Part shown: positions 39,695 through 58,814 of the stretch, piece by piece
Layout: each line of letters begins with the position of its first letter
Numbering within the stretch: the first letter of the stretch is position 1
Assembly: GCF_010726765.1 (NCBI RefSeq)
Contig: NZ_AP022601.1
Location: 4,774,001 to 4,838,000 of the forward strand
Length of the DNA: 64,000 bases
From: Mycobacterium gallinarum
GTDB lineage: Bacteria > Actinomycetota > Actinomycetes > Mycobacteriales > Mycobacteriaceae
Direction: 5' to 3'
The notes under the pieces: model-generated
Seen by the model: the letters and a program-made list of their open reading frames with translations, nothing else
Told to the model about the DNA's origin: nothing
Databases searched by the model: none
Program-made: the position numbers and the translations under genes

Positions 39695-39991
39695 TCAGAT
39701 GGGCGGGACCTCGTAATACCCCGACGACGAGGCCGACGACGACGAGGTGAGGACGTCGCCACGGTTGAGATCTTTGCGCTCGATCCCCTTCATCAGCACG
39801 CCCACGTTCTCGCCGGCGCTCGCCTCGTCGAGCTGTTTGCGGAACTTCTCGATCGCGGTCACCTTGACCCCGGGACCCCCGTTGATCTGTACGGTGTCGC
39901 CAACGCGCAGCGTTCCACTTTCGACGCGGCCGGTCGCGACCACGCCCCGATTCTTGATGGCGAAGACCTCTTCGACGGTCATCTTGAACAT
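39695..39991 (-). CDS. Stand-alone EF-Tu domain-2-like protein
   Basis: The 98-residue protein aligns by eye to the second (beta-barrel) domain of EF-Tu: FKMTVEEVFAIKNRGVVATG, GRVESGTLRVGDTVQI, AIEKFRKQLDEASAGENVGV and KGIERKDLNRGDVL. A Ser-rich tail follows. There is no GTPase domain before it and no domain 3 after it, and the gene is intact with its own ATG. That ATG overlaps the SDR stop (TGATG), so the two are coupled. Function unknown. It is not a frameshifted tuf fragment, because upstream sequence is a complete SDR gene. Confidence 0.8.
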   Translation of the reverse strand: MFKMTVEEVFAIKNRGVVATGRVESGTLRVGDTVQINGGPGVKVTAIEKFRKQLDEASAGENVGVLMKGIERKDLNRGDVLTSSSSASSSGYYEVPPI

Positions 39992-41452: not shown

Positions 41453-42052
41453 TCAGGACAAGATCAACGACACACCGAGTCCGGTCATAGTGACGGCAAT
41501 CAGCCCGTCGAGGATCCGCCAGGTAAGTGGTGTGGCGAACAGTCCGGACAGGCGCCGCGCTCCGAGTCCGAGGCTGACGAACCAGACGACGCTCGCGGTG
41601 ACCGCACCGACGCCGAACAGCCACCTCTGCTCGCTGTGCTCGTTGGCCAGGGTGCCCAGCAGAATCACCGTGTCGAGATAGACGTGCGGATTGAGCCACG
41701 TCAGCGCGAGGCAGGTGACCAGCACCTCGAGGAGTCGCGCCGGCCCCTTCTCCGAGGCCGTCAGTGTGGACGGCCGGCATGCGCGCCCGGCCGCGAGCAT
41801 TCCATATCCGATCAGGAACGCGGAGCCACCGAACCGGGCGATGTCGAGCGCGCCGGGGTGTGCGGCGATGAGGGCGCCGACGCCGGCGATGCCCGCGGTG
41901 ATGAGCAGGATGTCGGATACCGCGCACACCGCCACCACCGCGGCCACATGTTCACCGCGGATGCCCTGGCGCAGCACGAAGGCGTTCTGCGCGCCGATCG
42001 CGATGATCAGCGTCAGGGAGGCCAGGAAGCCGACGATCAGCGGGGAGTCCAT
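41453..42052 (-). CDS. lysE: LysE-family basic amino acid exporter
   Basis: The 199-residue membrane protein has about six helices and the LysE/ArgO motif [19 protein letters not shown] near residues 15-33. It exports lysine and arginine. The ATG at 42052 gives the same length as M. tuberculosis Rv1986. A three-half-site CATTAG/CTAATG operator lies just upstream. Its usual divergent partner lysG is not adjacent but 5.4 kb away (47488). Confidence 0.88.
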
Positions 42053-42089
42053 GGATACGACGGTAGGCATCCTGGCCGAATCAGTACAG

Positions 42090-42124
42090 CTAATGATTCT
42101 TCATCTGCATTAGATATGCTAATG
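42090..42124. promoter_or_regulatory. Putative LysG operator of lysE
   Basis: Three half-sites are present: CTAATG (42090-42095), CATTAG (42108-42113) and CTAATG (42119-42124). The last two form a perfect 6+6 palindrome with a 5-base spacer. The site is A/T-rich against the local background and lies 38-72 bp before lysE, as expected for a LysR-type regulator. Confidence 0.6.
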
Positions 42125-42170
42125 TCCGCCAACCGTTGCTGTCACAGTTGCACGGCCGCTCCCTTAAACG

Positions 42171-43277
42171 TCAGCCGAGCTTTTCGGCGAAGAACTCAGT
42201 AAGCGTGTCGAACGGGATCATTTCGATACGGTCGTAGAGGTCGACATGCCCCGCGCCGGGCACGATGACGAGGTCCTTCGGTCCTGCAGCGCGGGCAAAG
42301 GCGTCCTCGCTGAAGTACCGCGAGTGAGCCTTCTCTCCGGCGATGAACAGCAGGGGCCGCGGCGAGATGGACGCTATTTGGGTGAAGGGGTAGTAGCCGT
42401 TCATCGCCGGGTTACTTGTCAGCGTGAACGCCGTTGTCGAGCGTGGGTGTTCGCCGCGGGGAGTCCGGTAGTAATCGAAGAACTCGCGCTCGACCGCGGT
42501 CGATTGATCGGTCAACTCCACCGGCGTCCCAGGCACCATCTGGGGCTGCTCACCGTCGACTTCGGCCCAGCGTTGGTCGGCGACCTGCCTGAGCGTCTGC
42601 TGGCGCTGCTCCTCGGGAACGGTGTCGTTGAGACCTTGCCGCATCGCTCGTCCCATGTCATACATGCTGACGGTGGCCAACGCACGGATGCGTGGGTCGG
42701 CGGCTGCAGCGCTCAGCGAAAAGCTTCCGCTGCCGCACACGCCGATGACTCCGATGCGGTCTCTGTCGACCAAAGAGTTCGTCCCGAGGTAGTCCACGGC
42801 GCTGCTGAAATCTTCGGTGAAGGCCTCGGGCGACGCGATGTTGCGCGGTGACCCACCGCTCTCACCGCCGTAGGATGCGTCGAATGCCAGTGTGACAAAG
42901 CCCCTTTCGGCCATCTGCTGGGCGTACAGTCCCGACGACTGCTCTTTGACGCCTCCGTAGGGGTGACCCACGATGATCGCGGGGTGTCGCACGGCGCGGT
43001 CGATGTTCTTCGGGATGTAGAGATCCCCGACGAGATTGATGCCGAGTCGGTTGTCGAAGGTGACCTTCTCGACGTCGACGCGGTCACTCTGAGGGAATGT
43101 CTTGTCCCAGGTTCCCGCTTGGGATACGGCGCTGTCGCCCTGTGTCATCTCGCCGGACGACGGGGCGCAACTGGTCAGCGCGATCACGCCGAACGCTGTT
43201 AGTGCCGCGCCGAGGGCAGGCCGAAAACGGCGCCTGGCGGTGTGCGACGAGGTCGGCAGATCGGATGTCGTGCTCAT
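42171..43277 (-). CDS. Secreted alpha/beta hydrolase lipoprotein with Cys nucleophile
   Basis: The 368-residue protein has an Arg-rich signal and a lipobox at Cys37 (ALTSC). The fold resembles YcjY/dienelactone hydrolases. The nucleophile elbow reads GVCGSG, which puts Cys, not Ser, in the nucleophile position; the His is probably in GAGHVDLYD near 350. Substrate unknown. The ATG at 43277 follows AGGAG. It lies 61 bp after an SDR gene on the same strand. Confidence 0.82.
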   Translation of the reverse strand: MSTTSDLPTSSHTARRRFRPALGAALTAFGVIALTSCAPSSGEMTQGDSAVSQAGTWDKTFPQSDRVDVEKVTFDNRLGINLVGDLYIPKNIDRAVRHPAIIVGHPYGGVKEQSSGLYAQQMAERGFVTLAFDASYGGESGGSPRNIASPEAFTEDFSSAVDYLGTNSLVDRDRIGVIGVCGSGSFSLSAAAADPRIRALATVSMYDMGRAMRQGLNDTVPEEQRQQTLRQVADQRWAEVDGEQPQMVPGTPVELTDQSTAVEREFFDYYRTPRGEHPRSTTAFTLTSNPAMNGYYPFTQIASISPRPLLFIAGEKAHSRYFSEDAFARAAGPKDLVIVPGAGHVDLYDRIEMIPFDTLTEFFAEKLG

Positions 43278-43338
43278 TTTTGTTCTCCTGATGATGTGAG
43301 GTAGTTGGCGAATATTGTTGCGGGAAAGGAGGAAAGGG

Positions 43339-44106
43339 TCATCGGGCGGTGTAGCCGCCGTCGACCGGTAGCGCGACTCCGACGACGAAGGCGGCGCCGG
43401 GACTGCACAACCACAGCACCGCGGAGGCGATCTCTTCCGGCTCGCCGAGCCGGTTGATCGGTTGATTCGCAATGGCTTCGGCGCGGTCCAATTCGCCGTT
43501 GTCGATCATGTCGGTCACCATCGGCGTGGCGATGGTGCCGGGGCACACCGCATTGATGCGGACACCTCGCGGGGCGTATTCGAGGGCCGCGCTGCTGGTC
43601 AGGCCGATCACACCGTGCTTGGAGGCGTGGTATGCGGCGCGCCCCGGAATTCCGACGAGTCCGCCGAGTGACGAGCAGTTCACGATGGCTCCGCTGCCAT
43701 GGCTGCGCATCTGCGCCAGTTCATGTTTCATACATGCCCACACCCCGCGCAGGTTGATGGCGTTGACTCGATCGAACGTCTCGGCCGGTTCGTCCGCGGC
43801 GTCGCTCGGCGGCACCTGAATGCCGGCGTTGTTGAACGCCATGTCGAGACGTCCGTACTTGCGCACCACTTGGCCGACCGTTGCGGCGACGTTGTCTTCG
43901 TCGGACACGTCGCAGCCGAGGCCTATCGTGTCGAATCCGTCGGCGACAAGGGCCTCGGAGGCCTCCTTGGCCGCCGCCTCGTTGATGTCGGCGAGCGCTA
44001 CCGTTGCGCCCGATCGCGCGAATGCGCGGGCGGTGGCCAGGCCCATTCCTGACGCGGCGCCGGTGACGAACGCAGTCTGCCCGGTGAAGTCGTATGTCGG
44101 GTTCAT
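43339..44106 (-). CDS. Short-chain dehydrogenase/reductase, divergent from an XRE regulator
   Basis: The 255-residue classical SDR has TGAASGMG near residue 15, NNAG near 92, a Ser pair in NCSSLGG and YHASKHG near 158. An upstream in-frame extension of 238 codons is not coding. The start at ATG 44106 is 123 bp from the divergent regulator, with a 7+7 palindrome between. It is probably regulated by that protein and transcribed with the hydrolase. Confidence 0.88.
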   Translation of the reverse strand: MNPTYDFTGQTAFVTGAASGMGLATARAFARSGATVALADINEAAAKEASEALVADGFDTIGLGCDVSDEDNVAATVGQVVRKYGRLDMAFNNAGIQVPPSDAADEPAETFDRVNAINLRGVWACMKHELAQMRSHGSGAIVNCSSLGGLVGIPGRAAYHASKHGVIGLTSSAALEYAPRGVRINAVCPGTIATPMVTDMIDNGELDRAEAIANQPINRLGEPEEIASAVLWLCSPGAAFVVGVALPVDGGYTAR

Positions 44107-44139
44107 CTTGTTTTCCTTCGTTCGACTGACATCCAGGAA

Positions 44140-44157
44140 ACGCCGTTTAGACGGCGT
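44140..44157. promoter_or_regulatory. Palindrome between the SDR and XRE genes
   Basis: ACGCCGT-TTAG-ACGGCGT is a perfect 7+7 inverted repeat in the 123-bp divergent region, a candidate site for the XRE protein. Confidence 0.5.
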
Positions 44158-44229
44158 GAGGGAGTCACTGAGCAGAGGTGTACTCAGAGTGCATCCCTCA
44201 TCGAGGGCTGCCGACGTACCGTCGATGGC

Positions 44230-45111
44230 ATGGACAACCGAGCCGAGGTCCGCGAGTTCTTGACCTCGCGGAGAGCGAAGATCACTCCGGAGCAGGCCGG
44301 CATCCCCGTCGCCGGGCAGCGGCGCGTGCCTGGTTTGCGCCGCGGGGAGGTCGCGTCGCTGGCCGGTGTGAGCATCGAGTACTACTCGAAGCTGGAACGC
44401 GGTGCGCTCGGCGGTGTGTCGGCGTCGGTACTGGACGCGCTGGCCCGGGCTCTGCAGCTCGATGACGCCGAACGCGCGCACCTCTTTCACCTCGCACACG
44501 CCGCGGACGGAACGAATGCCGGGATGCGCCCGCGCCGCCGTCCCGGCACACGTTGGACCCCGAGACCCGCGCTGCAATGGGTGCTTGACGGGATCGCGCC
44601 GCCGGCCATCATCCGCAACGGACGGATGGACCTGCTGGCCACGAACTTTCTGGGCCGGGCGATGCATTCTTCGCTGTACGAGCGTGAACCGGGCGACGTT
44701 CCAAACTTCGCGAGGTACACGTTCTTTGATGATGACGCGCAGCGTTTCTACGTAGATTGGGAGACGGCCGCAGATACCTGCGTGGCGATCCTGCACACCG
44801 AGGCTGGTCGGGACCCTCATGACAAGGCCCTACATGACCTCGTCGGTGAATTATCGACCCGCAGTGCGGAATTCCGCTGTCGATGGAGTTCGCACAACGT
44901 GCGTCTGCACGGCGCGGGGGTCAAGCATTTCCACCACACCGTCGTCGGGGACTTGGAGTTGGCGTACGAAGGCGTGGATATGATCGCCGACCCGGGCCTG
45001 ACCCTAACCATCTACGTGGCCGAACCCGCCTCACCGACCGCGCACGCCCTCGACCTGCTTGCCTCTTGGGCGAGCACCACCTCTGACTCCGACGTTGGTG
45101 CTCCATCATGA
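44230..45111 (+). CDS. XRE-family regulator, MmyB type (copy 1)
   Basis: The 293-residue protein has an N-terminal helix-turn-helix (EVREFLTSRRAKI, then LRRGEVASLAGVSIEYYSKL) and a C-terminal PAS-like MmyB ligand domain from about residue 110. These regulators often control an adjacent SDR and may bind fatty acids or similar ligands. It is divergent from the SDR and coupled by ATGA to the lipoprotein gene. Confidence 0.88.
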   Translation: MDNRAEVREFLTSRRAKITPEQAGIPVAGQRRVPGLRRGEVASLAGVSIEYYSKLERGALGGVSASVLDALARALQLDDAERAHLFHLAHAADGTNAGMRPRRRPGTRWTPRPALQWVLDGIAPPAIIRNGRMDLLATNFLGRAMHSSLYEREPGDVPNFARYTFFDDDAQRFYVDWETAADTCVAILHTEAGRDPHDKALHDLVGELSTRSAEFRCRWSSHNVRLHGAGVKHFHHTVVGDLELAYEGVDMIADPGLTLTIYVAEPASPTAHALDLLASWASTTSDSDVGAPS

Positions 45112-45608
45112 AAGGAACTGGCTGGGTGCTCCTTTCGCTATCGCTTCTCGCTATCGGGTGCTCGAACTCCGAAACCGATAACACCCCAATATCGGCGACA
45201 GGTGTTGCCTCGCAACAAGAGGACTCACAGGCCCCGGTCATCGGCGAGATCCCGGTCGCCGGCATTCGGCTAGAGGTCGGCGGTCAACGGATCGCAGCGC
45301 AGCTCGCCGACAACCCCACTGCGATCGAACTGGCCGCGCAGCTACCGATGACCCTGTCGTTCAGGGATCTCAACGCAGTGGAGAAGATCGCCAGACTTCC
45401 GCGACCGCTCACGATGGATGGGGTGCCCGCCGGTGACGATCCCCAGATTGGTGACATCGGCTACTACGCACCTTCGCAGGATTTGGTTCTGTACTACGGC
45501 GACGTCGGCTACTGGAACGGCATCGTCCGCATCGGTCGGTTCGACGCCGCCCAATTGTCTTTCCTGGAGAAGCTCGACGGTTTCGATGCCGTCATCGAAG
45601 CTGCGTGA
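45108..45608 (+). CDS. Lipoprotein with cyclophilin-like domain
   Basis: The 166-residue protein has a signal peptide ending LAIGC (Cys18), then a cyclophilin-like beta barrel of the bacterial type: IRLEVGGQRIAAQLADN, TLSFRDLNAVEKI, GDIGYYAPSQDLVLYYGDVGY. Proline isomerase activity is not established for this group. It starts inside the XRE stop (ATGA) and its own stop overlaps a GTG of the next frame. Confidence 0.75.
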   Translation: MKGTGWVLLSLSLLAIGCSNSETDNTPISATGVASQQEDSQAPVIGEIPVAGIRLEVGGQRIAAQLADNPTAIELAAQLPMTLSFRDLNAVEKIARLPRPLTMDGVPAGDDPQIGDIGYYAPSQDLVLYYGDVGYWNGIVRIGRFDAAQLSFLEKLDGFDAVIEAA

Positions 45609-46060
45609 GCCGCCCAGCAGAGCGCCGTCCTGGCCGCCGTCGTGCCCCCGAAATGTGGAAGGCGGAATCGTCTGCCGCCGAGGGCGCCGGCGTCGAGATT
45701 TCGCGGAATGATCAGCGCCCCGCAGCCGCCGGCCCGGCGGAGACCTTCACCGGCGAGGTGAGCGTCAGACCGCTCTTCGAGCCCAATGCCGCCCGCGACT
45801 TCAGCTCGGCCGAGGTGTCGTTCACACCCTGCGCGCGGACCGCGTGGCACAGCCACTCCGCCGGACAAACGCTGATTGTCACCGCGGGCTGAGGTTGGGT
45901 GCAGGAGTGGGGCGGCGCACGACAGAACATCGCCGCCGGCGACGTCATCTGGACCGACCCCGGAGTCAAGCACTGGCACGGAGCCAACAGCGATACTGCC
46001 ATGACCCACATCGCTGTTCAGGGCGTGGTCGACGGCAGCCCCGCGGCCACGCAGGGCCCT
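45605..46060 (+). pseudogene. Cupin gene interrupted by an in-frame TGA
   Basis: The frame from about 45653 encodes a typical small cupin of the quercetin-2,3-dioxygenase/carboxymuconolactone-associated type: GPAETFTGEVSVRPLF, then ARTAWHSHSAGQTLIVTAG. It then meets TGA at 45890-45892 and continues as [23 protein letters not shown] and TAMTHIAVQ. The metal-ligand histidines occur on both sides of the stop. The normal C-terminus and stop are also gone, and the frame runs open into the MFS gene. The simplest view is a decaying gene. The stop replaces a position that is often Cys or Arg. Confidence 0.75.
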
Positions 46061-46156
46061 GGGATCGGTGCGAGAACCCACAGAAGCCCCAGTTCAGCCC
46101 CGCGAGGCGTCGCTAATCTGCTTCCATTGCGTCGGACCTGCGCAGAAGGGGCAACG

Positions 46157-47488
46157 ATGACCACCCACCTCCCCGATTCGGCCCTGGGTCAGCAGACGAT
46201 GGTGAAGGTCACCCGTCGCCTGCTCCCGTTCCTGATTCTCCTCTACTTTGTCAACTACCTCGATCGCGTCAACATCAGCTTCGCCGGCCCCAACGGCATG
46301 AACGAAGACCTCGCGATGAGCGCCAAGATGTTCGGCTTCGCGTCGGGCATCTTTTTCATCGGCTACCTGCTGCTCGAAGTGCCGAGCAATATCGCGCTGC
46401 ACAAGTTCGGCGGCCGCCGCTGGCTCGCACGCATCATGCTGACGTGGGGAATCATCAGCAGCGCAATCGCATTCGTGCCCAACGCGGAAACCCTGATCGT
46501 CCTGCGCTTCCTGCTCGGTGTGGCAGAAGCGGGCTTCTTCCCGGGAATCATCCTCTATCTCACCTTCTGGTTCCCGGAAAGGCACCGCTCCAAGGCCATT
46601 TCGTTGTTCATGGTGGCAGTGCCGGTGTCAACCGCCGTCGGTTCCACACTGTCCTCGCTGATCATCGAGTGGGGGCACGGCGTTCTGTTCGGCCTCGACG
46701 GCTGGCGGTTCATGTTCCTCGTCGAGGGCATCCCCGCCGTCATTCTCGCGTTCGTCTGCTGGTTCTACCTGACCGACCGGCCTGCCGAGGCCGAGTGGCT
46801 CGAGCACGACGAAAAAGGTTGGCTGGAAAGCATTCTGGATGTCGAACGGTCAATGGCAGAAACCGGCCAGCACTGGCCGCTCAAGAAGGCGCTCAGTCAC
46901 CCGAGAATCCTCCTGCTGGCGTTCATCTATTTCGGCATCACCTACGGCCTGTACGCGGTGGGCTTCTTCCTCCCCACCATCGTCGCCGGATTCCAGCAGC
47001 AGTACGGCACCCACCTGAGCATCATCGAGCGCGGCCTCGTGACGTCCGTGCCCTACGTCGTCGCTGCCATCGTGATGGTGCCATGGGCCCGCCACGCCGA
47101 CCGGACCGGCGAGCGGGTGTGGCACGTCGCGATCCCTGCGATCGTCGGAGCGGTGTCCATCCCGGTCGCGCTCTACATGACCGATCCCTACCTGGCGATG
47201 GTCGCTGTCACCCTGTCGACATGCTCGGTCATGTGTGCCCTGCCCGTCTTCTGGGCGCTGCCGTCCGCGTTCCTCACCGGGGTCGCCGCGGCGGGCGGTA
47301 TTGCGCTGATCAACTCGCTGGGGAACCTCAGTGGCTTCGGCGGCCCGTACATCACCGGGTGGCTGACCGATCTGACCGGCAACGCCAAGGCCGCGATGTG
47401 GGTGGTCGGGATCCTGTCGCTGGCCGCCGCCGTCGTGGTGGTGTACCTGGGCCACAAGCCCAGGCCCGAAACGGAGGCATCGGCCTAG
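46157..47488 (+). CDS. MFS transporter, anion:cation symporter (ACS) type
   Basis: The 443-residue carrier has twelve predicted helices. It has the ACS-type opening [20 protein letters not shown], the loop [21 protein letters not shown] and a signature [15 protein letters not shown] near 125-139. Relatives take up sugar acids, phthalate or tartrate. The ATG at 46157 follows AGAAGGGG. The frame is open further upstream through the broken cupin, but translation probably starts here. Its TAG overlaps the lysG GTG by one base. Confidence 0.88.
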
Positions 47489-48360
47489 TGCAGATAGACG
47501 GCCAGCAGCTGGCGGCGTTCGCGGCCGTCATCGAGCACGGCTCGTTCGATGCCGCAGCGGCCCAGCTCCACGTCACACCGTCGGCGATCAGCCAGCGCAT
47601 CAAGGCGCTGGAACAGCGGGTGGGACAGGTGGTGGTGGTGCGGGAGAAGCCCTGTGTGCCAACGTCCGCCGGCGTTCCACTGTTGCGGTTGGCTGCGCAG
47701 ACCGCGCTGCTGGAGGCCGAGACTCTCGCGGAGATGGCCGGGGGTGACGGGTCCTCTCCACGTATTGCGTTGGCTGTCAACGCCGATTCTATGGCGACGT
47801 GGTTCACCGGTGTGCTCGACACGCTCGAGGGGGTGCTGTTCGACATCCGCATCGAGGACCAGGATCATTCGGCGCGACTGCTGCGCGAGGGTGTGGTGAT
47901 GGGGGCGGTGACGACCGAGCGCACGCCGGTAACGGGTTGCCGAGTATTGCCGCTAGGCGTGATGAGGTACGTAGCCGTCGCAGCCCCGCGGTACATCGAA
48001 AGGTATCTGCCCCAGGGTTTCACGGCTCGCGCCGTGGCGGCAGCACCGTCGCTGGCGTGGAATCGAGACGATGCCCTGCAGGACATGTTGGTGCGCAGGG
48101 TGTTCCGTCGCGACATCACTCGTCCGCAGCATTTTGTGCCGACGGCTGAAGGGTTCGGGAGCGCCGTGCGGGCGGGCCTCGGGTGGGGGATGTTCCCGCA
48201 GAATCTGGCCGCACCCGCCCTGTCGGACGGATCTTTCGTTCGCGTGGTCGACGCTCACCTCGACGTCCCGCTGTTCTGGCAGTGCTGGAAGCTCGACAGC
48301 CGGTTGGTCGGGGCCATCACCGCGGCGGTTCAGTCCGCCGCCGTGAAGATCATGGTGTGA
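47488..48360 (+). CDS. lysG: LysR-type regulator LysG (ArgP family)
   Basis: The 290-residue protein has an N-terminal helix-turn-helix (LAAFAAVIEHGSFDAAA, VTPSAISQRIKALE) and the LysG/ArgP core with VREKPC, AVNADSMATWF, IEDQDHSARLLREG, LAWNRDD and LGWGMFP. It should activate lysE in response to lysine or arginine. The start is a GTG overlapping the MFS stop. Unusually, lysE lies 5.4 kb away on the opposite strand, with the MFS and other genes between. The end overlaps the sigma-factor gene by 11 bp. Confidence 0.9.
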   Translation: MQIDGQQLAAFAAVIEHGSFDAAAAQLHVTPSAISQRIKALEQRVGQVVVVREKPCVPTSAGVPLLRLAAQTALLEAETLAEMAGGDGSSPRIALAVNADSMATWFTGVLDTLEGVLFDIRIEDQDHSARLLREGVVMGAVTTERTPVTGCRVLPLGVMRYVAVAAPRYIERYLPQGFTARAVAAAPSLAWNRDDALQDMLVRRVFRRDITRPQHFVPTAEGFGSAVRAGLGWGMFPQNLAAPALSDGSFVRVVDAHLDVPLFWQCWKLDSRLVGAITAAVQSAAVKIMV

Positions 48361-57950: not shown

Positions 57951-58814
57951 GTGGAGCACAACGTGGAGTTGAGGGACTTCCTGCGTACCCGCCGTGCGCG
58001 TCTGAACGTCGACGATGTCGATGTCGGGGGCACCGGCCGAAAGCGGCGCGTGCCGGGGTTGCGTCGCGAAGAGGTCGCTGCGCTTGCCGGTGTGAGCGTG
58101 GATTACTACAGCCGCCTCGAGCAGGGCCGCCACCTGAATGTGTCCGATGAGGTTCTCGACGCCGTGGCTCGCGCGTTGCGCCTCGACGACACCGAACGCG
58201 CGTACCTGTTTCGGATCGCCAAGACCAACCCGCGACGTCCGCGCCGGCGTGCACCGGCGCCCGTGCAGCGCGTGCGGCCCGGTGTACGGCGCCTCCTCGA
58301 GAGGCTGGACGACGTGACACCCGCGTTCGTCTTCGGCCGCCGGATGGATGTGCTCGCCACGAACAACCTGGCGCGCGCACTGCTCACGGATTTCGAAGAG
58401 CTCCCGCCGCGTGAACGAAACCTGTTGCGCTACACGTTTTTAGACGAGTCCACCCAAGAGTTGTTCGTCGATTGGGAGGAGGTCGCCAAGGACAACGTCG
58501 GGACCTTGCGCCTCGACGCCGGACGTCATCCCGACGACCCGCTGCTGATGGAGTTGGTGGGTGAGCTGTCGGTGAAGAGTCCGGAGTTTCGCCGTTATTG
58601 GGCCGATCACAATGTGCGCGAACGCACGCATGGAACGAAGCGCTACCACCACCCCCTCGTCGGGGACCTGACGCTGCAGTATGAGTCCGTTGCGCTCCTC
58701 GGCGATCCCGACCAGACGCTGTGCCTCTACAGCGCGGAGGCGGCGTCGCCCTCGGAGACGGCCTTACGCCTGCTGGCCAACTGGACCGGTGAGCGCGTCA
58801 GCGAGGGTCGATGA
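57951..58814 (+). CDS. XRE-family regulator, MmyB type (copy 3)
   Basis: The 287-residue protein is close to copy 1: helix-turn-helix (VELRDFLRTRRARL, then LRREEVAALAGVSVDYYSRLEQGRHL), then the MmyB domain with TNNLARALLTDFEELP and WADHNVRERTHGTKRYHHP. It starts with a GTG at 57951. It probably represses the divergent SDR. Its end overlaps the NYN gene convergently by 17 bp. Confidence 0.88.
   Translation: MEHNVELRDFLRTRRARLNVDDVDVGGTGRKRRVPGLRREEVAALAGVSVDYYSRLEQGRHLNVSDEVLDAVARALRLDDTERAYLFRIAKTNPRRPRRRAPAPVQRVRPGVRRLLERLDDVTPAFVFGRRMDVLATNNLARALLTDFEELPPRERNLLRYTFLDESTQELFVDWEEVAKDNVGTLRLDAGRHPDDPLLMELVGELSVKSPEFRRYWADHNVRERTHGTKRYHHPLVGDLTLQYESVALLGDPDQTLCLYSAEAASPSETALRLLANWTGERVSEGR

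What the first reader, a model, noticed from the sequence alone, without database searches (positions are those of the whole stretch)
41453..48360. lysE and its regulator lysG are split by a 5.4-kb insertion
lysE and lysG are normally adjacent and divergent. Here they keep their outward orientation but are separated by a hydrolase, SDR, XRE regulator, cyclophilin-like lipoprotein, broken cupin and MFS carrier. The CATTAG/CTAATG operator stays next to lysE, while lysG starts inside the stop of the MFS gene. lysG has thus lost its native promoter and may be driven with the carrier.
Basis: partly seen in the sequence, partly recalled or inferred. Interest (0 to 1): 0.7.

Follow-up and report, generated by a model that had tools for sequence, protein, structure and literature searches.

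The report
Transposon-prone gap between lysE and lysG
In many mycobacteria the lysine exporter gene and its regulator, normally side by side, have been pushed apart by inserted DNA, and in several of them the DNA is a Tn7-like transposon that lands at the same point beside the regulator's binding site; the stretch examined here is one such split pair, although it carries no recognisable transposon itself.

Summary
Observation confirmed: lysE and lysG, the only such genes found in this genome, face outward 5,417 bp apart; the operator stays with lysE and the lysG start overlaps the MFS stop (TAGTG).

Not confirmed: one 5.4-kb insertion in this lineage. Relatives G213 and G341 show the earlier state, lysE <- operator -> MFS-lysG, with only MFS between. 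This genome adds about 4.0 kb (hydrolase, SDR, XRE regulator, lipoprotein, broken cupin) beside the operator, cutting MFS-lysG off from it.

The split is widespread in the genus: of 121 pairs countable on one contig, 30 are adjacent, 90 are outward but 1.5-268 kb apart, 1 is an exception. Outside mycobacteria 63 of 68 lysE loci have lysG adjacent.

A cause was found in relatives. In 10 genomes a Tn7-like transposon end lies 66-74 bp from one operator landmark; TnsA, TnsB, TnsC and TniQ genes adjoin lysE in four of them, a decayed set in a fifth. In G144 the element cuts lysG at codon ~12 with a 5-bp target duplication. So the lysE upstream flank looks like a homing site of mycobacterial Tn7-like elements. 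Most split genomes, this one included, show no such end; here the link is position only.

The parts
41453..42070 (-). lysE, lysine exporter
   Evidence: TIGR00948 above cut-off; the only PF01810 match in the genome
42080..42124 (.). LysG operator / lysE promoter block, retained with lysE; ACAGCTAA at 42086-42093 is the landmark TTAGCTGT read in lysE orientation
   Evidence: operator model above all 1,201 controls
42161..42163 (.). point at which Tn7-like elements insert in relatives (68-70 bp from the landmark), projected onto this genome; no transposon end is present here
   Evidence: distances; projection is inference; best end score in the window 5.1
42171..43274 (-). alpha/beta hydrolase (DLH-type), part of the block seen only in this genome
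   Evidence: PF01738; absent from the lysE-MFS spacer of G213, G341, G081, G125
43339..44106 (-). SDR oxidoreductase, same block
   Evidence: PF13561
44230..45111 (+). XRE/MmyB-type regulator, same block
   Evidence: PF17765, PF13560
45108..45608 (+). cyclophilin-like lipoprotein, same block
   Evidence: PF18050; lipoprotein by eye
45605..46090 (+). broken cupin: 45605-45892 in one frame, remainder in another
   Evidence: NF049940 positions 1-64 of 130, below cut-off; ORFs
46115..46156 (+). leader of MFS, where likeness to the short lysE-MFS spacer of relatives resumes; right edge of the added block
   Evidence: sequences printed, compared by eye
46157..47488 (+). MFS carrier, older insert shared by seven relatives
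   Evidence: PF07690; 88.6-92.1% identity in G213, G125, G169, G277, G341, G081, G039
47488..48360 (+). lysG, LysR-type regulator; GTG start overlaps the MFS stop
   Evidence: TIGR03298, NF002964 above cut-off

Best explanation
The sequence just upstream of the lysE operator (in the ancestral order, the 5' end of lysG) is a recurrent insertion site in mycobacteria. In ten relatives it shows the end of a Tn7-like transposon (right end toward lysE, 66-74 bp from a fixed operator landmark), which breaks or displaces lysG while the operator stays with lysE. In the lineage of this window an MFS gene first came to lie between operator and lysG, giving lysE <- operator -> MFS-lysG as still seen in G213 and G341. 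Later a block of about 4.0 kb entered within 50 bp of the operator, at or next to that point, and cut MFS-lysG off. LysG should still act on lysE from a distance through the retained operator, but its autoregulation should be lost and its expression coupled to MFS (TAGTG). Shown by sequence: anatomy, layered history, fixed insertion point in relatives, target duplication in G144. Inferred: that the transposon's TniQ protein reads the operator side, that this genome's block came by the same route, and everything about expression.
For: lysE <- operator -> MFS-lysG in G213 and G341, and MFS in all seven clade relatives examined. 120 of 121 countable same-contig pairs are outward at gaps from under 100 bp to 268 kb, against 63 of 68 adjacent outside mycobacteria. 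Transposon ends in nine distinct lysE loci and G345; distances 68, 69, 68, 68, 71, 70, 68, 74, 66, 69 bp. TnsA, TnsB, TnsC, TniQ next to lysE in G144, G039, G037, G345; TnsA plus TnsB fragment in G140. G144: lysG cut at codon ~12, GCGGC on both sides; its sister G033 has intact adjacent lysG.
Against: This genome has no TnsB match at E 1e-30 (2 of 10 first-look candidates were scored) and no end (best 5.1). Only 9 distinct loci among the 97 genome labels scored show a clear end, so most separated pairs lack direct transposon evidence. The two G144 ends are on different contigs of a draft. In G039 the 5-bp duplication fits only if one end is shifted by a base (by eye). A second operator copy before lysG in many relatives is not explained by simple Tn7 insertion.
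Confidence: 0.62

Rival explanations
1. A single 5.4-kb insertion carrying all six genes split a conventional lysE-lysG pair in this lineage.
For: All six genes lie between the pair now.
Against: G213 and G341 have MFS alone between, with the same TAGTG overlap; seven relatives have MFS beside lysE or lysG.
Confidence: 0.05
2. The lysE-lysG gap is an ordinary hotspot: gene blocks come and go by homologous or illegitimate recombination between conserved flanks, and the Tn7-like elements are just some of the visitors. This genome's 4-kb block came that way.
For: Cargo differs widely between lineages and most intervals show no transposon end; the block here has no transposase.
Against: Does not by itself explain ends 66-74 bp from one landmark in ten genomes or lysG cut at codon ~12 with a 5-bp duplication.
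Confidence: 0.28
3. The whole lysE-lysG pair was duplicated and each copy lost the other half (reciprocal loss), leaving lysE and lysG apart, each with an operator.
For: Second operator copy before lysG in 13 of 65 split rows above every control; several lysG copies in G144, G162, G370.
Against: Random loss should also leave inward pairs: none among 121. No lysE remnant found in the scanned loci at E 1e-3.
Confidence: 0.05

Closest known systems
Tn7 and Tn7-like transposons with TnsD/TniQ protein-guided homing (PMC10293859, PMC8649781: passages seen)
   Same: The elements in relatives have TnsA, TnsB, TnsC and TniQ, ends running TGT...ACA, a fixed distance and orientation to the target, and in G144 a 5-bp duplication.
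   Different: Target is the operator flank of a regulator-exporter pair and the regulator gene is cut, where PMC8649781 stresses sites that leave the attachment gene intact. That paper says the actinobacteria-rich clade has no experimentally characterised member. The window itself has no such element.
lysE-lysG of Mycobacterium tuberculosis (Rv1986-Rv1985c; PMC5648196, abstract and passages seen)
   Same: Same genes and a matching inverted-repeat operator; there LysG activates lysE with lysine or histidine and represses itself.
   Different: There adjacent with overlapping promoters; here 5.4 kb apart with the operator only at lysE.
Genomic insertion hotspots between conserved genes (recalled in general)
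   Same: Variable cargo between two conserved anchors.
   Different: Anchors are a regulator and its own target, and a defined transposon family and insertion point are visible in ten genomes.

Membership tests
Tn7-like transposon (elements beside lysE in relatives) | TnsA endonuclease subunit | tested here: met
   NF033179 TnsA_like_Actin above cut-off in G144 and G037; no Pfam hit
Tn7-like transposon (elements beside lysE in relatives) | TnsB DDE transposase | tested here: met
   Matches solved TnsAB/TnsB chains, best E 4e-14; Mu-transpos_C in G144. NCBIfam's best is IS481, below its cut-off
Tn7-like transposon (elements beside lysE in relatives) | TnsC/TniB ATPase | tested here: met
   TniB above cut-off in G144 and G039; relatives in G037, G345, G159, G272
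Tn7-like transposon (elements beside lysE in relatives) | TniQ/TnsD target selector | tested here: met
   PF06527 in G144, G039, G037, G345, G159, G272
Tn7-like transposon (elements beside lysE in relatives) | Ends with inner repeats and 5-bp target duplication | tested here: met
   Both ends and GCGGC in G144, on two contigs; in G039 only with a one-base shift
Tn7-like transposon (elements beside lysE in relatives) | Site-specific transposition activity | not testable with these tools
   Needs a transposition assay
Tn7-like transposon (the 4-kb block of this window) | tns genes | tested here: not met
   No TnsB match at E 1e-30 in G000; Pfam calls of the interval genes show none
Tn7-like transposon (the 4-kb block of this window) | Transposon ends | tested here: not met
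   Best end score in the 64-kb window 5.1, against 34-44 for clear lysE-side ends
LysG/ArgP regulator | Family model | tested here: met
   TIGR03298, NF002964 above cut-off
LysE/LysG divergent pair | Adjacent divergent genes with shared operator | tested here: not met
   5,417 bp apart, operator only at lysE
LysE/LysG divergent pair | Lysine-dependent activation of lysE by LysG | not testable with these tools
   Needs expression data

The most novel reading that the evidence does not exclude
The LysG operator / lysE promoter is a dedicated protein-guided attachment site of mycobacterial Tn7-like transposons: the target selector reads the operator side of a regulator-exporter pair, the element destroys the regulator gene beside it, and lysG is re-supplied by the island (in G144 another lysG lies right behind the TniQ genes), so that in many rapidly growing mycobacteria lysine export is run by a displaced or replaced regulator. 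The window is an eroded outcome of this process.
Probability: 0.4. Interest if true: 0.78.

Novelty: new variant of a known kind. Interest (0 to 1): 0.6.

Why it matters
A divergent regulator-target pair is normally kept together; here it is broken repeatedly at nearly one point, giving natural replicates for asking how a LysR regulator copes away from its target. It also points to a new attachment site for Tn7-like elements in actinobacteria, a clade that PMC8649781 describes as without an experimentally characterised member, and to a door by which islands (up to 268 kb between lysE and lysG) enter in some species.

Tried and rejected
Operator mimicry. Five long TniQ proteins of elements beside lysE or inside the interval (G144, G345, G037, G159, G272) carry a C-terminal LysR-type HTH (the G159 one is below Pfam's cut-off), which suggested that the selector imitates LysG; the short TniQ of G039 has none. 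Control: 5 of 7 long TniQ from elements elsewhere carry it too. Two of these five (G281, G016) sit at the 3' end of dnaB, as does one of the two without it (G332); the sites of the rest were not identified. The G144 HTH gave no BLAST hit to the LysG panel at E 0.01, though ArgP models match it weakly, behind CbbR. Claim dropped.

Replacement of lysG by a foreign copy in the G098/G004 group: lysG and lysE trees differ, but the AU test does not reject agreement (p 0.25 and 0.18).

Remnant scan at E 1e-3: no lysE remnant; six lysG hits, five weak and more like other LysR genes, one the frameshifted rest of G031's own lysG. By eye, short lysG starts remain beside lysE in G067, G144 and G158.

The first rpoB tree mixed strands and is void; one search replaces it.

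Literature searches, listings seen: lysE, lysG, mycobacteri; Tn7-like, TnsD, attachment site, mycobacteri; Tn7-like, TniQ, target selector; Tn7-like, actinobacteri, TniQ, attachment site; 3 of 4; Tn7-like, LysR, TnsD; Tn7, Mycolicibacterium, TniQ, TnsC; 2 of 4; 20 of 151 listed; lysG, genomic island, transposon, mycobacteri; Tn7-like transposon, dnaB, actinobacteri: 0; TnsA, TniQ, Mycobacterium, insertion site: 0. No title or abstract start that I saw names lysE/lysG as a Tn7-like site. Passages were seen in PMC5648196, PMC10293859 and PMC8649781 only; LysR, lysG and lysE do not occur in the main text of PMC10293859, nor LysR and lysE in that of PMC8649781. Supplements and most subscription papers were not searched.
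Full report
WHAT IS THERE. lysE (41453-42070, -) and lysG (47488-48360, +) pass the curated cut-offs of their families, lysE narrowly. They are the only LysE (PF01810) and the only LysG (next best 35% identity, E 1e-4) found in the 6.30-Mb, two-contig genome G000. They face outward with 5,417 bp between. The interval holds an alpha/beta hydrolase and an SDR in lysE's direction, then an XRE/MmyB regulator, a cyclophilin-like lipoprotein, a cupin broken into two frames and an MFS carrier in lysG's direction. The operator block stays with lysE. The MFS stop and lysG start share bases (TAGTG).

THE OPERATOR. In adjacent relatives the lysG start directly abuts the block, so both promoters share about 45 bp. 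A 43-nt model from 19 adjacent genomes finds the block upstream of lysE in 97 of 97 genome labels (a few genomes have two labels), all above the best of 1,201 control gene upstreams. The M. tuberculosis operator (GCTAAT/ATTAGC) agrees (PMC5648196, passages). On the lysG side one search lists 68 rows; three (G370, G162, IS-1590) are adjacent genomes, which I set aside. Of the other 65, 13 score above every control and 15 above the 99.9th percentile; more keep a half by eye only (G081 scores -17.8, G133 -22.5). So a second operator copy often, not always, precedes the displaced lysG. G000 has none (-31.4).

HISTORY OF THIS LOCUS. On rpoB the clade is ((G039,G081),(G125,G000)), fully supported. 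G081 reads lysE <- operator -> MFS - operator remnant (by eye) - lysG, 1.5 kb in all. G213 and G341 have only MFS between and, like G277, already share the TAGTG overlap. G125 and G169 keep a clear operator copy before lysG (42.3 and 43.4). All seven relatives searched have the same MFS at 88.6-92.1% identity: next to lysG in G213, G341, G277, G081 and G039, on the lysE side in G125 and G169. MFS was therefore between the genes before G000 arose, and in G213 and G341 MFS-lysG is divergent from lysE across the operator. In G000, likeness to that short lysE-MFS spacer resumes at about 46115, and beyond the operator (42124) I see none (by eye). About 3.94-3.99 kb is thus an addition seen only in this genome among the eight. 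G277 (34 kb) and G039 (112 kb) also have inserts between lysE and MFS; that they are independent is inferred from size.

GENUS-WIDE PATTERN. Searches covered 396 genomes of the genus: 188 had lysG at E 1e-30 and 204 lysE at E 1e-20. The lists of places are capped, so only pairs printed for both genes on one contig were counted: 121. 30 lie within 335 bp, 90 are outward and 1.5-268 kb apart, 1 (G344) is 1.41 Mb apart on one strand; none is inward. The counted set leans to genes most like those of G000. On the rpoB tree of 59 genomes, adjacency and separation change at least 7 times, with three genomes whose genes lie on different contigs counted as separated. Outside mycobacteria 63 of 68 lysE loci have a divergent lysG within 45-168 bp; 5 show none in the fetched stretch. 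Among the 12 named mycobacterial loci, one is adjacent, two are split within 10 kb, nine show no lysG in the stretch.

A MECHANISM IN RELATIVES. Beside lysE in G144, G039, G037 and G345, and about 18-20 kb away in G159 and G272, lie TnsA, TnsB, TnsC and TniQ genes; beside lysE they are transcribed away from it. G140 keeps TnsA and a TnsB fragment. TnsA passes NF033179 in both elements tested; TnsB matches solved TnsAB/TnsB chains, best E 4e-14. Next to lysE the element ends in a motif like ATCCGCCACG..GAACCTACA. A 28-nt end model scores 34-44 in nine distinct lysE loci and 35.0 in G345; every other lysE row scores 12 or less. Eight of these ten were used to build the model, G028 and G345 were not; leave-one-out scores of the 11 training ends are 17.9-42.9. 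From the end to TTAGCTGT it is 68, 69, 68, 68, 71, 70, 68, 74, 66 and 69 bp; an eleventh, weak end (G158, score 8.4) is at 78. In G144 the end is followed by lysG codons 12 to 1 and the operator; on another contig an end of the same kind is followed by lysG from codon 12, with GCGGC at both, and the sister G033 has an intact adjacent lysG. G370 and G158 also show such an end directly before lysG codon ~12. In G039 the target spacer should have held MFS leader, not lysG (its sister G081), yet the distance is the same; this suggests recognition on the operator/lysE side, an inference. A left-end-like motif (24.8) stands upstream of MFS in G039, 978 bp from the MFS start.

CONTROLS AND COUNTER-EVIDENCE. 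TnsB relatives occur in 126 of 392 genomes at E 1e-30. Of 30 TnsB loci fetched, 12 abut the 3' end of dnaB and 3 abut lysE, so these elements use more than one site. The LysR-type HTH of the long TniQ proteins is shared with elements elsewhere (5 of 7) and is no evidence of operator mimicry. Most lysE loci of split genomes show no end. G000 has no TnsB match at E 1e-30 (2 of 10 candidates scored) and no end. The second operator copy before lysG is unexplained. G144 carries another lysG just behind its TniQ genes and a third about 80 bp from a transposon end on contig C5, which hints that islands bring lysG along; beside TniQ in G037 and G345 no lysG was found.

HOW IT MOST LIKELY WORKS HERE. 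LysG binds the operator at lysE in trans; distance should not matter (recalled, general). Lost in G000 is the shared promoter through which LysG would repress its own gene. lysG is probably made from the MFS transcript with overlapping stop and start. A consensus scan finds 3 promoter-like sites against 0.7 expected, one of them at the lysE operator, none just before lysG. None of the expression model is shown.

VERDICT. The single-insertion reading is replaced by a layered one. The strongest new result lies in the relatives: the flank of the lysE operator is a fixed insertion point of mycobacterial Tn7-like elements.

Noticed in passing
L352, L353, L358, L362, L364-L367, L370-L373 (unnamed relatives): 12 of 30 fetched TnsB loci abut the 3' end of dnaB, so dnaB looks like a second attachment site of mycobacterial Tn7-like elements.
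   Followed up: partly
L352, L353, L364, L366, L372: In five of these only the last 59 residues of DnaB match and the upstream reading looks like an intein end (by eye).
   Followed up: no
L334, L336, L337 (G370); L302, L341, L342 (G162): Several lysG copies or pieces, with contigs breaking inside lysG; both an intact and an end-joined lysG are assembled, as if two states coexist.
   Followed up: partly
G344 C1 (L331, L332): Only same-contig pair not outward: lysE and lysG 1.41 Mb apart on one strand, lysG with its own operator copy.
   Followed up: partly
G115 and G075 (12 listings): lysE and lysG matches with several internal stops in two 3.3-Mb genomes: decayed genes.
   Followed up: no
window 57963-58814: A second regulator clustering with the XRE/MmyB gene at 44230-45111.
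   Followed up: no
window 39695-39991: Small ORF whose translation resembles an isolated elongation factor Tu domain (by eye).
   Followed up: no
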